A stretch of DNA of 41,759 nucleotides from Bernardetia sp. GTDB taxonomy: Bacteria; Bacteroidota; Bacteroidia; Cytophagales; Bernardetiaceae. Numbering within the stretch: position 1 is the stretch's first letter; each line of letters starts with the position of its first letter. The position numbers and the translations under genes were made by a program. This document shows positions 1,710 to 39,948 of this stretch, piece by piece. Below the pieces are notes generated by a model that was given only the letters and a program-made list of their open reading frames with translations, was not told where the DNA came from and searched no databases. The stretch is taken from positions 1-41,759 of the forward strand of contig NZ_JAHDIG010000042.1 of the NCBI RefSeq assembly GCF_020630935.1, written 5' to 3'.

Positions 1710-1800
1710 CCTTCATTTTCAGTTACTTATATGTCTGACCATTATATTTCGGTAGCAGAGTTGAGAAAATTTGCTGATTATAAAATGGCTGTATAAAAAT

Positions 1801-2370
1801 ATGAAAAAACTATCAACGCTTTACAAAAAAGACCCTAATGATTTAGGACGAGTTATAAATGAAATTAATCCTCAAAATAAATGGATTTTTATTTCTGGAG
1901 TTCCCACACGAAAATTTGATGGAACGTCTTGTGCTATCATTGATGGCGAACTTTATAAGAGGTTTGATTTAAAAAAGGGAAGAAAACTTCCTCCTAATGC
2001 CATTCCTTGTCAAGAAGCAGATGAGAAAAGTGGACATCACCCTCACTGGATAAAGTGCCTAAGAGAAGATAAAAGTAATAAGTGGCACTTTATAGCTTTT
2101 GATAATTTAGAAAATAAAGAAGATGGTACTTATGAACTGTGTGGAGAAAAAGTGCAAGGAAATCCTGAATGTATTGAAGGACATCATCTAATTAAACACG
2201 GCTCTGAAATATTAGACATTACAGATTTCAGTTTTGAGGGGTTAAAATCTTTCTTGGAAATAAATGACATTGAAGGTATTGTGTTTCACGATTCAGAAAG
2301 CGATAAAATGTGTAAGATTAGAAAATCCGACTTTGGAATTAAACGAGTTATAAAAAAGCAAAATGAGTAA
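1801..2370 (+). CDS. RNA ligase, Rnl1/DUF5565-type nucleotidyltransferase
   Basis: 189 aa from the ATG at 1801; an upstream TTG at 1771 would add ten residues but leaves no better context. The protein has the covalent nucleotidyltransferase motif I, RKFDGT, with the AMP-accepting lysine at about residue 38. It also has a DGTYEL segment, motif IV (EGIVFHD) and motif V (CKIRKSDFG) near the C-terminus. These match the small RNA-ligase family often labelled DUF5565 or RNA ligase 1. Enzymes of this superfamily seal 5'-phosphate to 3'-OH RNA ends using ATP. The protein is a compact catalytic core with no extra domain. The last 8 bp overlap the next gene, implying translational coupling. A role in repairing cleaved tRNA would suit a prophage that carries a tRNA cluster, but that is inference. 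Confidence 0.85.
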   Translation: MKKLSTLYKKDPNDLGRVINEINPQNKWIFISGVPTRKFDGTSCAIIDGELYKRFDLKKGRKLPPNAIPCQEADEKSGHHPHWIKCLREDKSNKWHFIAFDNLENKEDGTYELCGEKVQGNPECIEGHHLIKHGSEILDITDFSFEGLKSFLEINDIEGIVFHDSESDKMCKIRKSDFGIKRVIKKQNE

Positions 2371-3148: not shown

Positions 3149-3484
3149 ATGCCATTAATAGTCAAGTCAACAATGGGTTATTGGGTAGCTAAAGAAACTA
3201 GAAAAGGTTCTAGGTATATGCCATCGCATAGAGAGTTTTTCTTTAGAGTTTCAATGGAAGAATTAAAACCTATAACTAAAGAAGAACTGCTAGAAGCAGC
3301 CAGCAGATTCAAAATTTCCATACCAGAAAACCCTACTGAAAGTGATTTGTACAAAGTAGCTAGCGAAATTCACAATTCTATTTATGGAGCTGAATTTGCA
3401 AGTGCTGATGGCTTCCCATATAGAAAAGCTAAAATTTGTTTATCTGAAGAAAGAAAAAAAGAATTACCCTTAGATTTATTTTAA
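3149..3484 (+). CDS. Hypothetical protein
   Basis: 111 aa, soluble, with basic N-terminal and acidic C-terminal halves. The leader contains tandem TAATCAATCAATAATAAT just before the ATG. It ends 6 bp before the next gene. No recognised domain. Confidence 0.7.
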   Translation: MPLIVKSTMGYWVAKETRKGSRYMPSHREFFFRVSMEELKPITKEELLEAASRFKISIPENPTESDLYKVASEIHNSIYGAEFASADGFPYRKAKICLSEERKKELPLDLF

Positions 3485-15442: not shown

Positions 15443-16525
15443 TTAAAAAGATAAGGTAAGTTGCATACCTACTTTACTACTCATTTCTTGACTACTGAGG
15501 TTAGAAACCTGCAAACCCAATAATCGAACACCTTTTCTAAGAGGAAAAATACTTTTGAGCAAGGCAACATAAACCTTTGTAAAATCTTCTTTGGTCTGAA
15601 TATCCTCAATACTAGTCTGACTGCGAGTAATCTGTTTAAAGTCTGAATATTTTACCTTTAAAGTAACTGTTCTACCTTTTATATTTTTTTCTATGAGTAT
15701 AGAAGATAGTTTCTGTGTGATTTTTTCAAGAGCTTCTAGCATTTGCTGTTCTTCTAATAGATCTTCTGAAAAAGTACGCTCCGCACCAATAGACTTACGA
15801 GTGCGATTTGGATTGACAGGACGAGAATCTTCTCCACGAGCAATGTGATAGTAGAAGCCTCCTACTTTACCAAAATGCTTAAGCAAATCATTTTTTTTCC
15901 ACTTTTTCAAATCCTCACCTGTATAAATACCCAACTTATGCATCTTCTTTGCTGTTACCTTACCGATACCATGGAATTTTTTGATGGGAAGTTCATCGAT
16001 AAATTTAGAAGCATCAGCAGGTACAATAGTAAACAGTCCGTTGGGTTTATTGAAGTCAGAGGCTATTTTAGCCAAAAACTTATTGAAAGATATACCAGCA
16101 GAAGCAGTGAGGTTTGTTTTAGTTTTTATTTCTTCCTTGATTTGACGAGCAAGCAAAGTAGCAGAGGGGAACTGCTTTTTATTGTGTGTTACATCTAGGT
16201 AAGCCTCATCTAAGGAGAGAGGTTCTATTAAATCTGTATATTCTGAGAAAATTTCTCTAATCTGTAAAGAAACCTTTTTGTATTCTTCAAAACGAGGGCG
16301 AACAAAGATCAAATGAGGACATTTCTGCAACGCAATTTTGGAAGACATAGCTGAATATACACCGTATTTACGAGCTTCATAGCTGGCTGCTGCAACAACC
16401 CCTCGCTTACCATCTCCTCCAACAGCAAGAGGCTTCCCTTTCAGTTCTGGATGATCCCTTTGCTCTACTGAGGCATAAAAAGCATCCATATCGATGTGTA
16501 TTATTTTGCGAAGTGAAGCTGCCAA
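15443..16525 (-). CDS. dinB: DNA polymerase IV (DinB/Y-family)
   Basis: 360 aa. It has the Y-family core: IHIDMDAFYASVEQ (first catalytic Asp at about residue 12), Y-E-A-R-K-x-G-V, then S-L-D-E-A-Y-L-D with the catalytic Asp-Glu at 106-107. A helix-hairpin-helix segment (FHGIGKVTAKK) and a little-finger domain follow. The last residues, QLTLSF, resemble the beta-clamp binding tail QLxLF. No ATG lies upstream of the conserved core: a TAA stop is two codons before the TTG at 16525, so TTG is the likely start. Y-family polymerases copy damaged templates with low fidelity. This gene sits in a cargo segment between tail genes, as a passenger. Confidence 0.93.
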   Translation of the reverse strand: MAASLRKIIHIDMDAFYASVEQRDHPELKGKPLAVGGDGKRGVVAAASYEARKYGVYSAMSSKIALQKCPHLIFVRPRFEEYKKVSLQIREIFSEYTDLIEPLSLDEAYLDVTHNKKQFPSATLLARQIKEEIKTKTNLTASAGISFNKFLAKIASDFNKPNGLFTIVPADASKFIDELPIKKFHGIGKVTAKKMHKLGIYTGEDLKKWKKNDLLKHFGKVGGFYYHIARGEDSRPVNPNRTRKSIGAERTFSEDLLEEQQMLEALEKITQKLSSILIEKNIKGRTVTLKVKYSDFKQITRSQTSIEDIQTKEDFTKVYVALLKSIFPLRKGVRLLGLQVSNLSSQEMSSKVGMQLTLSF

Positions 16526-16827: not shown

Positions 16828-17046
16828 TTAGTAGATAAAAGTTTTGAGTAATCCGTACTGATTCTGTTGCAAAAAATCTTTACGGGTTGGACAGTCTGGT
16901 AGTTCATATTCCTTTATAGCCTCATCATATTTTTTACTCATTTCTTCTGTTTTCATCAGTAAAAAATGTGCTCTGCTAGGATTGGAGATAATAACTTCAA
17001 AAATTTCTTCTTTTGTCATTTTTGCAGGATCAAGTCGTTGTAACAT
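16828..17046 (-). CDS. Small protein, first gene of cargo pair
   Basis: 72 aa, acidic N-terminal helix (MTKEEIFEVIISNPSRAHFL) followed by a short Pro-containing region. The start lies 35 bp downstream of an ECF-like promoter element. No domain recognised. Expression is predicted to be linked to that of the DUF262, 99-aa and amidoligase genes through the shared element. Confidence 0.65.
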   Translation of the reverse strand: MLQRLDPAKMTKEEIFEVIISNPSRAHFLLMKTEEMSKKYDEAIKEYELPDCPTRKDFLQQNQYGLLKTFIY

Positions 17047-17081: not shown

Positions 17082-17119
17082 TTACACTACTCTACACGAG
17101 AACGTTTGGGAAGGGTTAC
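17082..17119 (-). promoter_or_regulatory. ECF-type promoter-like element, copy 2
   Basis: On the minus strand: GTAACC, 14 bp, TCGTGTA, then AGTAGTGTAA. It points at the 72-aa gene. Similarity to copy 3 extends into the spacer (CTTC at its start and ACGTT near its end), more than a chance match would give. Confidence 0.7.
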
Positions 17120-32056: not shown

Positions 32057-32461
32057 ATGCCTGAAAAAGAACGAAAAATAAGGAGCTATGAAAGGATGGC
32101 GAATCTATTCTCTTTACAGTTTTCATTTGCTCAAGTAGTTGATGAGATGATAAAAGATTTGTTTTTAGTGGTAGAGATAGGGACAGGAAAAATACTTATC
32201 GTAAACAAGGCTTGGGAAGATAGACTAGGTCTTGACTATGTGATGATGACTGGCGATTGCTTTATTGATTATGTAGCAGAAAGAAGCAAAGAAGAAACAT
32301 GGGCATTATTTACAGGAGAAAAAAAAGGCGAAGTGTCAGACTTTGAATTTAGTAACTATTATAAAAACGCTGCTGGAGAAGATGTGCTGTTGGAATGGCA
32401 TAGCGCAGCCGATACAGAAAGAAATATTGTTATTGCAACAGCTAGAATTATAAAAAAATAA
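32057..32461 (+). CDS. Stand-alone PAS-domain protein
   Basis: 134 aa. Residues 30-134 follow the PAS pattern: a D-x-x-L-V-V-E-x-x-T-G-K-I-L-x-V-N-x-A-W strand-helix, L-G-L-D-Y-x-x-x-x-G, an F-I-D-Y-V helix, then E-F-x-x-x-Y-K-N-A-A-G-E-D-V-L-L-E-W and a final strand. No kinase, GGDEF or DNA-binding domain is attached. The N-terminal helix may dimerise. It starts the rightward pair with endolysin, 4 bp apart. PAS domains sense small ligands or redox state; a stand-alone one could act by binding a partner. The partner here is unknown. Confidence 0.8.
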   Translation: MPEKERKIRSYERMANLFSLQFSFAQVVDEMIKDLFLVVEIGTGKILIVNKAWEDRLGLDYVMMTGDCFIDYVAERSKEETWALFTGEKKGEVSDFEFSNYYKNAAGEDVLLEWHSAADTERNIVIATARIIKK

Positions 32462-33391: not shown

Positions 33392-33464
33392 AAGATGATA
33401 GCTCAGTCGGTAGAGCATCTGTCTGATGCACAGAAAGTCATAGGTTCGAGTCCTATTCATCTTA
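33392..33464 (+). tRNA. tRNA-Ile (GAT)
   Basis: Complete cloverleaf: acceptor AAGATGA/TCATCTT, D arm GCTC/GAGC, anticodon stem TCTGT/ACAGA with loop CTGATGC (anticodon GAT), T arm with TTCGAGT, discriminator A. CCA is not encoded. First of seven tRNAs in 580 bp. Confidence 0.9.
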
Positions 33465-33470
33465 CGATTT

Positions 33471-33542
33471 GCTCCATTAGTCAAGTGGTTAAGATACTCG
33501 GCTTTCTACCGAGTGGCAAGAGTTCGAGTCTCTTATGGAGTA
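33471..33542 (+). tRNA. tRNA-Glu (TTC)
   Basis: Acceptor GCTCCAT/ATGGAGT with a G-U first pair, anticodon stem CTCGG/CCGAG with loop CTTTCTA (anticodon TTC), T arm AAGAG/CTCTT with TTCGAGT, discriminator A followed by CCA in the DNA. Spaced 6 bp from the previous tRNA. Confidence 0.88.
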
Positions 33543-33549
33543 CCACAAT

Positions 33550-33631
33550 GGGAATGTTGTAGATATGGCAATCTGCACCAGACTGTAAATCTGGAGCTTC
33601 GGCTTTCTAGGTTCGACTCCTAGTATTCCCA
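33550..33631 (+). tRNA. tRNA-Tyr (GTA)
   Basis: Acceptor GGGAATG/TATTCCC, anticodon stem CCAGA/TCTGG with loop CTGTAAA (anticodon GTA), a long variable arm as expected for tRNA-Tyr, T loop TTCGACT, discriminator A. Confidence 0.88.
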
Positions 33632-33650
33632 CAGCATAAAAAATACATAT

Positions 33651-33723
33651 TGCCTTGTGGTGTAATGGGTAACACGTCTGACTTTGGTTCAGAAGAGTTT
33701 AGGTTCGAACCCTAACGAGGTAA
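33651..33723 (+). tRNA. tRNA-Gln (TTG)
   Basis: Acceptor TGCCTTG/CGAGGTA (G-U pairs in the stem), anticodon stem TCTGA/TCAGA with loop CTTTGGT (anticodon TTG), T loop TTCGAAC, discriminator A. Confidence 0.88.
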
Positions 33724-33731
33724 CAAAATAA

Positions 33732-33802
33732 ACGCCTTTAACATAGTGGTAATGTACTGGTCTCCAAAACCAATGACGTGAGTTCGATTCTTACAGGGCG
33801 TG
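33732..33802 (+). tRNA. tRNA-Trp (CCA)
   Basis: Acceptor ACGCCTT/AGGGCGT, anticodon loop CTCCAAA (anticodon CCA), stem CTGGT/ACCAA with one C-A mismatch at its base, T loop TTCGATT, discriminator G as usual for tRNA-Trp. Confidence 0.85.
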
Positions 33803-33809
33803 CAATAAC

Positions 33810-33881
33810 GAGAGAGTAGCTTAGTGGTAGAGCAATCGGCTGTTAACCGATAGGTCGTAGGTTCGAAACCTACCTTTCTCG
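33810..33881 (+). tRNA. tRNA-Asn (GTT)
   Basis: Acceptor GAGAGAG/CTTTCTC, D arm AGTGGTAGAGC, anticodon stem ATCGG/CCGAT with loop CTGTTAA (anticodon GTT), T arm GTAGG/CCTAC with TTCGAAA, discriminator G. Confidence 0.9.
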
Positions 33882-33895
33882 CTAGAATATAACAA

Positions 33896-33967
33896 TGAGG
33901 TATAGGTCAAATGGTTAAGATATTACACTGTCTCTGTAAACGGAATGGGTTCGAGTCCCTCAATCAG
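33896..33967 (+). tRNA. tRNA-Asp-like (GTC) with degenerate acceptor stem
   Basis: The anticodon stem TTACA/TGTAA with loop CTGTCTC (anticodon GTC) and the T loop TTCGAGT between GGG and CCC are clear. The best acceptor pairing, TGAGGTA with TCAATCA, has three mismatches in the middle. Discriminator G fits Asp. It may be decaying or depend on an unusual structure. Confidence 0.6.
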
Positions 33968-33970
33968 CAC

Positions 33971-34013
33971 AAAAAACACCTTTCAAACTTACATTTTTGA
34001 AAGGTGTTTTTTT
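33971..34013. terminator. Strong intrinsic terminator after tRNA cluster
   Basis: A stem of about 17 bp: A6 CACCTTTCAAA pairs with TTTGAAAGGTG T7 around a short loop. It ends the rightward endolysin-tRNA transcript. It also covers the last bases of the convergent DUF262 gene, so it works in both directions. Confidence 0.9.
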
Positions 34014-34533
34014 ATACTTGAGCATTTCTATACTCAATAGCTATTTTTAAATCTTCTTCTGTGTGTACACTGCCTCCTGTGTTCATCCCTAAGTACCAAT
34101 CCACAACTTCCGTTTGAGTTTGTAAATTGTTGATATTCATTTTGAAATATAAATCAGAACCTTTTAGCATTGTATCTGCATCTTCAAACTCGTTGTAGAA
34201 ATATCCAAAGGTTTTTACTTCATTTCTCAAAAATCCTAAAATGGCACTTAGTCTTTGTTTCCCATCGACTAACTCAAAATTTAGGTCGTTACTTGCCGTA
34301 TCATACGCTGGGCAGTTCCAGTAAATATCTCTGCCTGATTGTCCTCCTTTTAATACATATTCTACAAACTCTGTTTTTTGTTTGTCGGTCCAAACGTAAC
34401 CTCTTTGATAAGCAGGGTCTGTATTTACTTCATAATCTTTTCCTTGTCTTTCTAGCCATCTTTCTAATCTTCCAAAAGGAACATGTGTGTGGTAGTTTGT
34501 TGTGGGTAATTTTTTAATGCTTGAAAATTTCAT
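34012..34533 (-). CDS. DUF262 (ParB/Srx-like) protein, stand-alone
   Basis: 173 aa. It contains the DUF262 signature: D-P-x-Y-Q-R-G-Y-V-W-T-D-x-Q-K-T-E-F-V-E-Y-V-L near residues 40-62 and F-E-L-V-D-G-K-Q-R-L-S-A-I near 87-99. In GmrSD/type IV restriction proteins this domain binds or hydrolyses nucleotides and is fused to DUF1524, an HNH-like nuclease. That second half is missing here. An ECF-like promoter element lies 23 bp upstream of the start. Phage copies could act as antirestriction or regulatory factors; this is inference. Confidence 0.82.
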   Translation of the reverse strand: MKFSSIKKLPTTNYHTHVPFGRLERWLERQGKDYEVNTDPAYQRGYVWTDKQKTEFVEYVLKGGQSGRDIYWNCPAYDTASNDLNFELVDGKQRLSAILGFLRNEVKTFGYFYNEFEDADTMLKGSDLYFKMNINNLQTQTEVVDWYLGMNTGGSVHTEEDLKIAIEYRNAQV

Positions 34534-34556
34534 TTTGTTATTTTTTGAGGTTCAAT

Positions 34557-34594
34557 TTACATTACTGTACACGACAACGTGTATGAAGGGTTAC
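34557..34594 (-). promoter_or_regulatory. ECF-type promoter-like element, copy 3 (DUF262 gene)
   Basis: On the minus strand: GTAACC, 14 bp, TCGTGTA, then AGTAATGTAA. It ends 23 bp before the DUF262 ATG. The spacer shares CTTC and ACGTT with copy 2. Confidence 0.7.
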
Positions 34595-34600
34595 AGTACT

Positions 34601-34900
34601 TTAGTTATATATCTGAAAGTATCTATCTGATGCAAATTCTATTTCTTGGTGAGCAGCTCTGAACATCTCACTTTTTCTAAACTCTGATTCTTTCCAAAAA
34701 TACCCATTGTTTACTATCTCATATTTTTCTGAATTACGCATCAAGAAGATGGCAACATCTGTCAATGTGATAGATCTTTCATACGCTTCAAACTGCTCAG
34801 CTAACTTTTCTTCTAGTTCTACAGAAGAACCCAAATGTTTTACTAAAATAGCTTCGTGCTGCAAGTCTTCATGGATGTAGGTGATAATAGTTGTTGTCAT
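34601..34900 (-). CDS. Hypothetical 99-aa cargo protein
   Basis: 99 aa, soluble, with an acidic helix (VELEEKLAEQFEAYE) and an aromatic C-terminus. No family recognised. Its start lies 29 bp after ECF-like element copy 4, and it is divergent from the amidoligase gene. It ends close to copy 3, so it is a separate transcription unit from the DUF262 gene. Confidence 0.65.
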   Translation of the reverse strand: MTTTIITYIHEDLQHEAILVKHLGSSVELEEKLAEQFEAYERSITLTDVAIFLMRNSEKYEIVNNGYFWKESEFRKSEMFRAAHQEIEFASDRYFQIYN

Positions 34901-34929
34901 TTTTTTATCTGTTATGGTTAGCGTTTTAA

Positions 34930-34967
34930 TTACACTACTCTACACGATAGTTGTTTATATAGGTTGC
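34930..34967 (-). promoter_or_regulatory. ECF-type promoter-like element, copy 4 (99-aa gene)
   Basis: On the minus strand: GCAACC (one change from the others), 14 bp, TCGTGTA, AGTAGTGTAA. It is divergent from copy 5, with 66 bp between them, so the intergenic space is a two-way control region. Confidence 0.65.
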
Positions 34968-35033
34968 AATAAAACAGATATATTTTTATATACTTTAATA
35001 TTACAATTATTATTTATTTTATTACTTTGTTTC

Positions 35034-35070
35034 GTAACCATTCAGAGGGTGTGTCGTGTAGAGTGTGTAA
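35034..35070 (+). promoter_or_regulatory. ECF-type promoter-like element, copy 5 (amidoligase gene)
   Basis: GTAACC (35034-35039), 14 bp, TCGTGTA (35054-35060), then GAGTGTGTAA, which is one base shorter than in the other copies. The ATG follows 25 bp later. Confidence 0.7.
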
Positions 35071-35095
35071 TTCAACTACTTAAAAAACAATACAC

Positions 35096-36010
35096 ATGAT
35101 AGAGCAAATATTAGCCTTACAGACAACCAAAACCGAAAAAATAAAGCAACTTTTAGAACTGGGATTTACAAGGACACAAGTAGCCGAACTTATGGGAGTG
35201 GGATATGGATTTGTTCAAAATGTATATGCTAAATACGTTTCAAACCAAACAAGCACTAGAGGCAATACTAAATTTAAACCTATCCATTTCAACAGACAGT
35301 TTGGAGTAGAAATAGAAGCCTATAATGTAACGAAGGCAAAATTAAAGAGAGAACTTATCAAATTAGGAATTAGAGTTGAGATTGAAAATTACAATCACAC
35401 CACCAAAACGCATTGGAAAATTATAACAGATGCCAGTATCAGAGGAGCAAACGGATTTGAAATTGTCAGTCCGATTTTGAAAGGAGAGGACGGACTGGAA
35501 CAACTTAAAAAAGTCTGTCAAGCTCTTAAAAACTGTAATGCCTATATCAACAAAAGTTGTGGCTTGCACATTCATTTTGATGCGAGTCAGTTCAAACTAA
35601 AGCAATTCAAAAATATCCTTTTAAACTATGCCAGTTTAGAAAATGTGATTGATATGTTTTTACCCAATAGCAGAAGGGCAAATAATAATAATTATTGCAA
35701 ATCCATAATCAACCACAAGTCAGCCATAGAAAATGCTTCTACCATCCATCAACTCACGGCTGCCATACCACAACGCTACAATAAACTCAATACAAAATCA
35801 TATACAAAATATAAAACCATAGAATTTAGACACCATTCAGGCACAGTAGAATTTGACAAAATTCATAACTGGATAGTATTTTTACATAACTTGGTGGAAT
35901 ATTCAAAAGATAAAAGAGTAAGCCAAGTACATTTTGAAACTCTCAAAACCTTTAATCAACCAAAAGTTTATACGTATTTAAACAATCGCAAGGAAGAACT
36001 AGCAGCCTAA
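35096..36010 (+). CDS. HTH-amidoligase (COOH-NH2 ligase family)
   Basis: 304 aa. A helix-turn-helix of about residues 13-45 (G-F-T-R-T-Q-V-A-E-L-M-G-V-G-Y-G-F-V-Q) precedes an amidoligase_2-like domain: F-G-V-E-I-E (69-74), W-K-I-I-x-D-x-S-I, G-F-E-I-V-S-P-I-L (120-128), C-G-L-H-I-H-F-D-A (155-163) and T-I-E-F-R-H-H-S-G-T (241-250). The family is related to glutamine synthetase-type and gamma-glutamyl-cysteine ligases, using ATP to form amide bonds, with acidic residues binding metal. Most family members have no DNA-binding domain. The HTH may target it to DNA or a partner. An 82-aa protein follows 90 bp later and could be a substrate; that is inference. Confidence 0.85.
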   Translation: MIEQILALQTTKTEKIKQLLELGFTRTQVAELMGVGYGFVQNVYAKYVSNQTSTRGNTKFKPIHFNRQFGVEIEAYNVTKAKLKRELIKLGIRVEIENYNHTTKTHWKIITDASIRGANGFEIVSPILKGEDGLEQLKKVCQALKNCNAYINKSCGLHIHFDASQFKLKQFKNILLNYASLENVIDMFLPNSRRANNNNYCKSIINHKSAIENASTIHQLTAAIPQRYNKLNTKSYTKYKTIEFRHHSGTVEFDKIHNWIVFLHNLVEYSKDKRVSQVHFETLKTFNQPKVYTYLNNRKEELAA

Positions 36011-36100
36011 AACCTAGCTATGACCTAGCTCAACCTATCCTAACTTAGCTTGCACCTTGCTTATACCTTTCTCAACTAACCTCAATACTACCTCAAAACT
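36011..36100 (+). other. ACCT-rich leader between amidoligase and 82-aa gene
   Basis: 90 bp without a gene. CT-rich on the plus strand with several ACCTAGCT, CTTAGCTTGC and ACCT units, unlike the A/T-rich leaders elsewhere. No stable hairpin or promoter box is seen. The bias may reflect local repeat growth. Confidence 0.4.
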
Positions 36101-36349
36101 ATGAAAACCTACATAACTAGCGATGATGACCAAATCATAAAAGCCTCCTCTGCTTTAGACATTGTAAATCAACTTAAAAATGGAGGCAGATTTACAGCCG
36201 ACCAACCCCCACAAGAATACATAAGAGAATTTGCTGAAAGAATGAAAGAATATGATGGAAGTCAAATTCGCTCTGATTCGGTAGAGCATTTTGTAGAAGA
36301 TTTACTTTCCATTAAATATCTCAAGGAAATCAGCGACCTCCAAAAATAG
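36101..36349 (+). CDS. 82-aa protein downstream of amidoligase
   Basis: 82 aa, soluble and mostly helical, with a strand at the start (MKTYITSDDDQIIKAS) and F-A-E-R-M-K-E-Y-D-G-S-Q-I-R in the middle. The C-terminus overlaps the convergent large terminase gene by 20 bp. A recognised function is lacking; it may be co-transcribed with the amidoligase. Confidence 0.65.
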   Translation: MKTYITSDDDQIIKASSALDIVNQLKNGGRFTADQPPQEYIREFAERMKEYDGSQIRSDSVEHFVEDLLSIKYLKEISDLQK

Positions 36350-38580: not shown

Positions 38581-39948
38581 ATGCAGGAGAAAGAAATAAG
38601 AGATAGGATCTTGAAAATGGAAAAAATAAACTGGCAAGAGCTGGAGTTTATACAACAAGAAGATTTTAAAGAGCTTCCTAAAACGGAAAGACAACGTCTC
38701 AAAGCCAGTTTTGTAGAGAATAACTTTGCTGATCCCTTCAAGATATGGGAAGACCAAGACGGAAAAAGGTATTGTTTGGATGGCAAACACAGAACGCTAC
38801 TTTTAAAGGAACTCATTGAAGAAGGAGTAGATGTGCCTTTACTACTTCCTGCGCTCTTTATGGAGTGTGAGGATAAAAAAGATGCTGCTCGTTTAGTTTT
38901 GGTGTATTCATCATCGTATGCTAGTATTACCTATGATGGAATGAATGCCTTTGTGCAAAATTATGATTTAGAGCTTAGTGAGCTCAAAGAGTTTATCAAC
39001 CTTCCCAAACTCTCCTTTGACAAACTAGAGCAAAAGTTTGATTATCATAACCTCAGTGATACAACCAAAGAAGAAGAGGAGGAAGACCCAACAGAAAAAA
39101 TGGAAGCACTCTCCGATCTAGAATTATGGGTACAAGCAGGAGATATATATGAGTTGGGAGGCAAGCATCGTCTGTATTGTGGTTCATTCAAAGATGAGAA
39201 AGAAGTGGCTATACTTATGGATGGAAAGCAAGCCAGAGTCGTATTTACTGATCCTCCTTACAATCTACCTACTAATTTCTTTAGTGGAAAGGGAAAAGTA
39301 ACCCATACCGATTTTGCAGAGGGAGCAGGAGAGATGTCAGATGATGAGTTTGCCTTGTTTATTCAGCAGATTTATGAAACAGCTGTAAAACATAGTGTGG
39401 ATGGAGCTATTATTTATTTGTGTATGGATTTTAGACACGCTTGGCACGTTTGTCAAGGAGCTTATCCAGTTTTCAAAACAAGAGAACCCAAGCAGTTATT
39501 GGTATGGAATAAATCACAGGCTGGCAATGGCAGTTTTTACAGAGCCAAGCACGAGCTTATTTTTATCTATAAAAAAGGAAAAGCAAAACACACTTCTAAA
39601 CTAGGACTAGCTGACAGGTTCAGAGCTAATGTAGTAGAATACCCTATTGCCAGTAGTTTCTCCAACCCAGATAGAGAGGTATTGGAAAATCATCCTACGC
39701 CAAAGCCTGTACAGATGGTTTCAGATGTGTGTCTTGATGTTTCAGATGAAAAAGAAATTATTATTGATTGGTTTATGGGTTCAGGCACTACTATTATGGG
39801 AGCAGAAGCAACAGGTCGTATTGCTTATGGAACGGAAATAGAACCAAAGTATGTCCAATTGATTCTAAATCGTTACCACAAAAAATATCCTGACCAAGAA
39901 ATCAAGTGTTTAAACAGAGAGAATGTAGAAATGAAGTGGACACTTTAA
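38581..39948 (+). CDS. ParB-like/DNA methyltransferase fusion protein
   Basis: 455 aa. Residues 15-160 form a ParB/Srx-like domain with the L-D-G-K-H-R motif at about 66-71. An acidic linker (EEEEED) leads to a methyltransferase with DPPY at 224-227 (catalytic, motif IV) and F-M-G-S-G-T about 170 residues later (motif I, S-adenosylmethionine binding). DPPY before FxGxGT is the beta-class order for N6-adenine or N4-cytosine methylation. No restriction enzyme gene is adjacent, so it is probably a phage protective or regulatory methylase. It reads away from the terminase operon. Confidence 0.9.
   Translation: MQEKEIRDRILKMEKINWQELEFIQQEDFKELPKTERQRLKASFVENNFADPFKIWEDQDGKRYCLDGKHRTLLLKELIEEGVDVPLLLPALFMECEDKKDAARLVLVYSSSYASITYDGMNAFVQNYDLELSELKEFINLPKLSFDKLEQKFDYHNLSDTTKEEEEEDPTEKMEALSDLELWVQAGDIYELGGKHRLYCGSFKDEKEVAILMDGKQARVVFTDPPYNLPTNFFSGKGKVTHTDFAEGAGEMSDDEFALFIQQIYETAVKHSVDGAIIYLCMDFRHAWHVCQGAYPVFKTREPKQLLVWNKSQAGNGSFYRAKHELIFIYKKGKAKHTSKLGLADRFRANVVEYPIASSFSNPDREVLENHPTPKPVQMVSDVCLDVSDEKEIIIDWFMGSGTTIMGAEATGRIAYGTEIEPKYVQLILNRYHKKYPDQEIKCLNRENVEMKWTL

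What the first reader, a model, noticed from the sequence alone, without database searches (positions are those of the whole stretch)
34012..36349. Candidate undescribed system: HTH-amidoligase, 82-aa protein, 99-aa protein and DUF262, each under the shared element
Three adjacent transcription units carry the same promoter-like element. One encodes an ATP-dependent amide-bond ligase fused to a DNA-binding HTH, followed by a small protein; another encodes a DUF262 domain without its nuclease partner. Amidoligases are predicted to modify peptides or proteins. A DNA-targeted ligase with a small partner and an NTP-sensing DUF262 protein in prophage cargo could be a defence or exclusion module. Components and joint control are seen; function is inferred.
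Basis: partly seen in the sequence, partly recalled or inferred. Interest (0 to 1): 0.7.

Follow-up and report, generated by a model that had tools for sequence, protein, structure and literature searches.

The report
Phage ligase with unrecognised small partner
A phage-like stretch of a bacterial genome carries a two-gene cassette, an enzyme predicted to forge amide bonds and a small unnamed protein, that many other phages also carry as a pair; the other two genes in the reported "system" look like mere neighbours under the same switch.

Summary
All four ORFs are real and correctly placed. The HTH-amidoligase has a full Amidoligase_2 domain (E 6e-44), a glutamine-synthetase-like predicted fold and invariant catalytic-type residues. 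The shared element is real: three adjacent units carry it, as does a gene 17 kb away. The 82-aa gene has none of its own; it follows the ligase.

As a four-gene system the finding fails. DUF262 is absent from the sibling prophage, where another small gene sits under the same element. The 99-aa gene was found only in this genus and also occurs without the ligase.

What is conserved is ligase + 82-aa protein (p82). In IMG/VR, 33 of 34 HTH-amidoligase loci have p82 beside the ligase; the 34th ends 31 bp after it. A search from p82 alone found an HTH-amidoligase upstream in 24 of 25 loci. p82 matches no PHROGs family (0 of 50).

Best reading: phage cargo, a variant of known phage amidoligase cassettes (GAT-II/GGCT) thought to modify the host surface; the HTH probably serves self-regulation and p82 is a dedicated partner. 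Substrate and phenotype are untested.

The parts
35096..36010 (+). HTH-amidoligase, 304 aa: helical HTH-like N-terminus (about residues 10-57) and Amidoligase_2 domain (residues 66-266)
   Evidence: PF12224 E 6.3e-44; AF2 mean pLDDT 91.9; glutamine-synthetase fold, Z 13.7 to 5dm3_C over 204 residues at 3.4 A, YbdK 1r8g Foldseek E 9.3e-4; E72, E74, D112, E122, H158, H160, R193, R227, N232, E243, R245 invariant in all 37 rows of A7 and all 44 rows of A5
36101..36349 (+). p82, 82-aa partner protein, predicted beta-beta-alpha-alpha-alpha-beta
   Evidence: homologue beside the HTH-amidoligase in 33 of 34 IMG/VR loci; HTH-amidoligase upstream in 24 of 25 loci found from p82 alone; AF2 mean pLDDT 85.7
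35034..35076 (+). shared promoter-like element in front of the amidoligase
34928..34946 (-). shared element (core) in front of the 99-aa gene
34555..34594 (-). shared element in front of the DUF262 gene
34601..34900 (-). 99-aa gene (p99), neighbour cargo; not part of the conserved pair
   Evidence: relatives at 77% and 67% identity in G003 only among 390 genomes of the order; two further weak hits at E 0.02-0.04 in the genus search; none in phages or viral contigs
34012..34533 (-). short DUF262 (GmrSD_N) gene, neighbour cargo; not part of the conserved pair
   Evidence: PF03235 E 2.6e-14; same-length relative (171 aa, 48%) in a 137-kb viral contig, L003; absent from sibling prophage L013
16828..17119 (-). 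further copy of the composite element (17093-17119) with its 72-aa ORF (16828-17046)

Best explanation
The island is a set of separate phage cargo genes behind copies of one phage-specific promoter-like element. The conserved unit in it is a two-gene cassette: an ATP-dependent amidoligase of glutamine-synthetase fold with an HTH-like N-terminus, and its partner p82. Shown by computation: the fold prediction, invariant catalytic-type residues, the very regular pairing with p82, the changing surroundings, and upstream elements of its own. Inferred: the ligase activates a carboxylate as an acyl-phosphate and joins it to an amine on a cell-envelope peptide or a host or phage protein; p82 binds the ligase or its target as a non-catalytic adaptor; the HTH controls the cassette's own transcription; the benefit is altering the host surface, for example to exclude other phages. 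DUF262 and the 99-aa gene are exchangeable neighbours.
For: Ligase. Clustered at 70, 60 and 50% ligase identity, all 18, 11 and 6 HTH clusters have p82; at 90%, 30 of 31. Starting from p82: 24 of 25 loci, 12 of the 25 on contigs not in the first set (11 of these 12 with the ligase). p82 also occurs in 15 of the 46 loci without a detected HTH; in 12 of those 15 a GGCT-like ORF, by a sequence pattern, lies within 3 kb. GAT-II is in 15 of 80 loci, never with p82. Exchangeable cargo: sibling prophage L013 keeps the gene order from head genes to integrase but has 75- and 81-aa ORFs where DUF262 sits here, the first under the same element. The composite element occurs 8 times in 7 congeneric genomes, only in the window contig (3) and in G003 (5), none for the reversed pattern, with an ATG ORF 61-73 bases from its first base at all 8. 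Before many other HTH-amidoligases of IMG/VR another element, ACTTGCRYGTTCC, lies 55-79 bp ahead of the start: 13 of 33 loci at up to 1 mismatch, none elsewhere in 528,552 strand-bases, and 0 of 45 non-HTH loci at up to 2.
Against: No substrate, activity or phenotype is known. p82 has relatives without a ligase in sight: L137 (311 bp upstream held) and genomes G081 and G382 (none in the 19 kb fetched). ACTTGCRYGTTCC was read off the same sequences; in 15 held-out loci only 3 have it exactly and 4 at up to 2 mismatches. The inverted-repeat test before the ligase reached only 4 loci because of a faulty pattern: nothing above shuffles in the window or L013, terminator-like repeats in L061 and L062. 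The HTH is below Pfam cut-offs. Profile comparison with two glutamine synthetases did not align the catalytic regions, so the residue correspondence rests on the fold and on recall. The 80 loci are the nearest relatives, not a random sample.
Confidence: 0.5

Rival explanations
1. BirA-like reading: the ligase modifies p82 itself (p82 as acceptor or carrier), and the HTH represses the operon according to how much unmodified p82 is present.
For: HTH plus ligase plus a fixed neighbour of about 80 aa, as in BirA with its acceptor (recalled); upstream elements of its own.
Against: No lysine or C-terminal acid of p82 is invariant in 50 sequences; the best columns include F64 (47), L68 (45), M41, A45 and R47 (43 each), D67 (39 D plus 5 E); C-termini vary. 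p82 also occurs without a ligase in sight.
Confidence: 0.15
2. The four genes form one anti-phage defence or exclusion system.
For: Shared element on three adjacent units; DUF262 domains occur in defence models.
Against: DUF262 absent from the sibling prophage, replaced by other cargo; p99 found only in this genus and present without the ligase (L133); element also on other cargo.
Confidence: 0.07
3. Modification of the phage's own virion proteins rather than of the host.
For: In the window and L013 the cassette lies beside the large terminase gene, in L014 beside a terminase-like ORF (by eye), and in Porphyromonas phages between head and neck genes.
Against: Neighbours vary: of 95 neighbouring ORFs scanned (of 130 selected), the structural families among the 25 shown of 94 match 2-3 members each; the cassette has upstream elements of its own.
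Confidence: 0.15
4. Peptidoglycan or envelope modification exactly as proposed for the phiEco32/RIO-1 cassettes, p82 being incidental.
For: Same ligase family; literature proposes superinfection exclusion (PMC5498523 and PMC11318856, passages read).
Against: No GAT-II profile hit and no credible GGCT pattern hit in the window; pairing with p82 is too regular to be incidental.
Confidence: 0.13

Closest known systems
Phage amidoligase cassettes with GAT-II and/or GGCT (phiEco32, RIO-1, tf, LUZ24-like; Iyer et al. 2009, paper not held, cited through PMC5498523, PMC11318856, PMC10580990)
   Same: Amidoligase in phage cargo next to one or more small partner genes; p82 itself also occurs in GGCT-type loci
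   Different: HTH-like N-terminus; p82 beside the ligase and no GAT-II or GGCT found; upstream elements of its own
YbdK / GCS2-type ligases and glutamine synthetase
   Same: Predicted fold; acidic and His/Arg residues invariant
   Different: No convincing sequence match to a solved chain (best E 0.035 with the single protein, none with the profile); substrate unknown
BirA (HTH plus protein ligase, autoregulated; recalled)
   Same: Architecture: HTH plus ligase, with a fixed small neighbour
   Different: Different ligase fold and chemistry; p82 lacks an invariant lysine
GmrSD-type DUF262 proteins, PD-T4-2_A
   Same: DUF262 N-terminal domain in the 173-aa neighbour
   Different: Single short domain of 171-173 aa; no partner nuclease found among the ORFs scanned

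Membership tests
Amidoligase_2 (PF12224) | Curated profile match over cut-off | tested here: met
   151.1 bits against 22, profile 2-244 of 245
Amidoligase_2 (PF12224) | Glutamine-synthetase/GCS-like fold with invariant metal/ATP-type residues | tested here: met
   Z 13.7 to 5dm3_C, rmsd 3.4, 204 aligned; invariant ExE, HxH and ExR positions; mapping to glutamine synthetase residues recalled, not aligned
Amidoligase_2 (PF12224) | ATP-dependent amide ligation | not testable with these tools
   needs enzymology
Phage amidoligase/GAT-II/GGCT cassette | GAT-II or GGCT gene beside the ligase | tested here: not met
   No GAT-II profile hit in the window; the only hit of the GGCT sequence pattern is an antisense stretch at 3293-3439; no GAT-II in any of 34 HTH loci with up to 4 kb on each side
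Phage amidoligase/GAT-II/GGCT cassette | Envelope modification or superinfection exclusion | not testable with these tools
   proposed, not shown, in the passages read
Known anti-phage defence systems (PADLOC-DB) | Model match of the core genes | tested here: not met
   0 hits at E 0.01 for ligase, p82 and p99; partial DUF262 hits only
GmrSD / DUF262 restriction systems | DUF262 domain | tested here: met
   PF03235 E 2.6e-14
GmrSD / DUF262 restriction systems | Partner nuclease domain (recalled: GmrSD C-terminal part) | tested here: not met
   the protein matches only the N-terminal model; no such family among the 45 window ORFs scanned with Pfam, which are not all ORFs

The most novel reading that the evidence does not exclude
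A phage-borne ligase-regulator: the HTH-amidoligase binds the shared elements, so that a cargo regulon (ligase-p82, p99, DUF262, small ORFs) is tuned by its ligation activity, and p82 is its dedicated protein acceptor or adaptor. That would be an amide-ligation system of phages with enzyme and transcription switch in one chain. Fitting facts: the composite element is found in both congeneric genomes that hold a complete HTH-amidoligase and in none of the four without one (the seventh, G006, lacks the upstream DNA).
Probability: 0.15. Interest if true: 0.75.

Novelty: new variant of a known kind. Interest (0 to 1): 0.5.

Why it matters
Phage amidoligases recur in many phages and are unexplained. 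A small protein that accompanies them so regularly, but is in none of the family libraries searched, is a concrete handle: co-purification, co-expression and mass spectrometry could show what these ligases act on. It also shows how a shared promoter-like element can make unrelated cargo genes look like one system.

Tried and rejected
Four-gene system: rejected on synteny. Element as an island-specific regulator: rejected, it also heads other cargo. p82 as a Pup-like or carrier tag: disfavoured, no invariant lysine or terminal acid. Inverted-repeat operator before the ligase: tested in 4 loci only, because the script's start pattern failed on the rest; nothing above shuffles in the window or L013; in L061 and L062 repeats that look like terminators by eye (0 and 1 of 20 shuffles as good). 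Terminators upstream of the ligase: 2 of 33 IMG/VR loci by a simple scan of 150 bp. Fold relatives of p82 in the PDB: none of note (best Foldseek E 0.4; best Z 2.6); one viral model of similar fold, A0A516M232 (TM 0.87 by query, E 3.7e-5), with no name at hand. Sequence relatives of p82 in the PDB: none below E 0.2. p82 in host genomes: 3 of 395 phylum genomes, own included; ligase 2 of 395, own included; the first look may miss short proteins. Motif-first search of viral contigs: 4 stretches; 3 precede an HTH-amidoligase, two of them on contigs already in the set, and 1 does not. p82 queries from non-HTH loci found in 'phages' only contigs already seen.
Full report
WHERE IT IS. The window is the whole contig C42 of a 4.75-Mb, 153-contig genome. 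A ligase 85% identical to its own lies in a record titled Bernardetia sp., which matches same-genus genome G006, so the host is probably of that genus. The contig carries phage genes: terminase, portal, tape measure, baseplate, head maturation protease, endolysin and a tyrosine integrase, and six tRNAs.

OBSERVATION. The ligase has a full Amidoligase_2 domain and the DUF262 a clear GmrSD_N match; the 99-aa and 82-aa proteins match no Pfam family over its cut-off. The promoter-like element is real and beyond chance, but no copy was found before the 82-aa gene, and the element also heads a 72-aa ORF 17 kb away.

THE FOUR GENES ARE NOT ONE SYSTEM. A sibling prophage in G003 (L013) keeps the window's order from the head genes through the endolysin, p99, ligase, p82, terminase and methyltransferase to the integrase. 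Where the window has DUF262, L013 has 75- and 81-aa ORFs, the first under the same element. The best DUF262 match in G003 lies elsewhere and is weak (E 4.4e-4). p99 has clear relatives only in G003, among 390 genomes of the order: one beside the ligase, and one under the element in another region (L133) without a ligase. It had no match in the phage records (E up to 1) and no relative in viral contigs. DUF262 relatives occur in 284 of 50,697 phage records, all under 60% identity.

THE ELEMENT. The composite form GTAACCNTNC-N(4-14)-TCGTGTA occurs 8 times in 7 congeneric genomes: 3 in the window contig, 5 in G003, none for the reversed pattern. At all 8 sites an ATG ORF begins 61-73 bases from the first base: ligase (2), DUF262, 72-aa (2), 75-aa, p99 and 68-aa. 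The two p99 genes beside the ligases carry a less exact copy. I read this as a promoter for exchangeable phage cargo, possibly the target of a phage regulator.

THE CONSERVED PAIR. With an HTH profile, 34 of 80 have the N-terminal domain; 33 of these have a p82 homologue beside the ligase, and the 34th (L051) ends 31 bp after it. Clustering at 90, 70, 60 and 50% ligase identity gives p82 in 30 of 31, 18 of 18, 11 of 11 and 6 of 6 HTH clusters. A scan that began from p82 alone returned 25 loci: 24 have an HTH-amidoligase just upstream; L137 has none in the 311 bp before p82. Of these 25 contigs 13 were already in the first set and 12 were new, 11 of the 12 with the ligase. Four Porphyromonas phage records (ORFs) and two Bernardetia relatives show the same order. 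Of the 46 IMG/VR loci without a detected HTH (L079 is cut at its N-terminus), 15 have p82, 15 have GAT-II and 16 neither. GGCT-like ORFs, by a sequence pattern and up to 2.9 kb away, accompany 12 of the 15 p82 loci, and Pfam finds GGACT in 21 of 71 downstream ORFs scanned, chosen from 132. p82 and GAT-II never occur together in the 80 loci; the loci are related by descent, so this is suggestive only. In Bacillus phage 035JT001 and Geobacillus phage GR1 the best p82 hits, weak at E 3.5e-4 and 2.3e-4, are small ORFs just after the ligase and just after its GGCT neighbour.

THE LIGASE. AF2 gave mean pLDDT 91.9. The best structural relatives are glutamine synthetases (Z 13.7, rmsd 3.4, 204 aligned, 5dm3_C) and YbdK (Foldseek E 9.3e-4; Z 12.0, rmsd 3.9, 214 aligned). 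E72, E74, D112, E122, H158, H160, R193, R227, N232, E243 and R245 are invariant in all rows of two alignments of 44 and 37. The likeness to the metal, ATP and glutamate ligands of glutamine synthetase is recalled; a profile alignment with two glutamine synthetases did not cover this part. The N-terminus is HTH-like by model and by weak profile hits, with I5, K12, K15, L19, G23, R26, Y37, G38 and N42 invariant in 21 rows.

p82. About 70-90 aa as trimmed in most loci (129 aa in two), predicted beta-beta-alpha-alpha-alpha-beta, mean pLDDT 85.7. 0 of 50 members match PHROGs at E 0.01; Pfam at E 0.1 gave scattered hits to one or two members each (best E 3.6e-4, 2 of 50, N_formyltrans_C) and none for the window's own; the window's p82 has no NCBIfam or PADLOC hit. 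No PDB fold match worth the name. The most constant positions are mostly hydrophobic or structural, with no invariant lysine or terminal acid, which argues against a covalent tag and for an adaptor. p82 also occurs in two genomes of the phylum without a ligase in the 19 kb fetched (G081, G382), and L070 and L154 have a second copy upstream of the ligase.

A SECOND, LIGASE-SPECIFIC ELEMENT. In the IMG/VR HTH loci, ACTTGCRYGTTCC lies 55-79 bp before the ligase start (sites at up to 2 mismatches): 13, 15 and 22 of 33 loci at up to 1, 2 and 3 mismatches, against 0, 12 and 151 hits elsewhere in 528,552 strand-bases; 30 permuted patterns gave 0, and 0 of 45 non-HTH loci have it near the ligase start. 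It was read off these sequences; in 15 held-out loci 3 have it exactly, 4 at up to 2 and 8 at up to 3 mismatches. Its first bases may be the -33 box of a Bacteroidota promoter (recalled). It fits autoregulation by the HTH but does not show it.

COMPARISON WITH THE LITERATURE. Phage amidoligase cassettes with GAT-II, GGCT and ATP-grasp genes are described as peptidoglycan-modifying and possibly superinfection-excluding (PMC5498523, passage; PMC11318856, passages; PMC10580990, passages); amidoligase with glutamine amidotransferase is also noted in phage tf (PMC3517423, passage). The founding paper (Iyer et al. 2009) is not held. Searches for amidoligase with phage, gamma-glutamyl cyclotransferase, Amidoligase_2/PF12224, phiEco32, Porphyromonas gingivalis/prophage, superinfection, helix-turn-helix, bacteroidetes with phage, and Bernardetia with prophage were read as listings (10 of 333 listed) apart from the passages named; in PMC7824862 the word stood only in the reference list and PMC10367356, on Porphyromonas phages, does not hold it. 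No title or opening abstract concerned an HTH-amidoligase with a small partner. Papers outside the library, or text I did not open, may hold one.

VERDICT. A real, recurrent two-gene phage cassette with an unannotated partner family, inside an over-grouped cargo island; a new variant of a known kind.

Noticed in passing
window 33392-33882; L013 11450-12689: Array of 6 tRNA genes between endolysin and cargo; the sibling prophage has 14 in the same place, and a tRNA-Arg beside its integrase.
   Followed up: partly
window 33896-33972: tRNA-like stretch after the array (T-loop and anticodon-stem look) not called by ARAGORN or Rfam; read by eye, maybe a decayed tRNA.
   Followed up: no
window 33974-34009: 14-base inverted repeat with a T-run on either side, read by eye: a possible two-way terminator between the tRNA array and DUF262. 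The pattern scan did not list it.
   Followed up: no
window 1771-2370 (assignment by its KFDG motif, by eye): RNA ligase: one window ORF matches phrog_14301 (E 3.4e-64) and one RLIG1 (E 3.9e-5). With the phage tRNAs this suggests tRNA repair.
   Followed up: no
window 15443-16525 (-): Y-family DNA polymerase (IMS, E 9.4e-55; assignment to this ORF by eye) in a phage contig, near a copy of the shared element.
   Followed up: no
window 38581-39948 (+): DNA methyltransferase with a ParB-like N-terminal match (phrog_498, phrog_1033), 80% identical in L013.
   Followed up: no
window 32057-32461 (+): Weakly PAS-like 134-aa ORF just before the endolysin gene, 71% identical in L013.
   Followed up: no
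L059, L062: p82 with a similar N-terminal extension of about 50 aa (129-aa proteins).
   Followed up: no
L134: In another genome of the phylum (G127) a divergent amidoligase lies beside a GAT-II gene, the known pairing.
   Followed up: no
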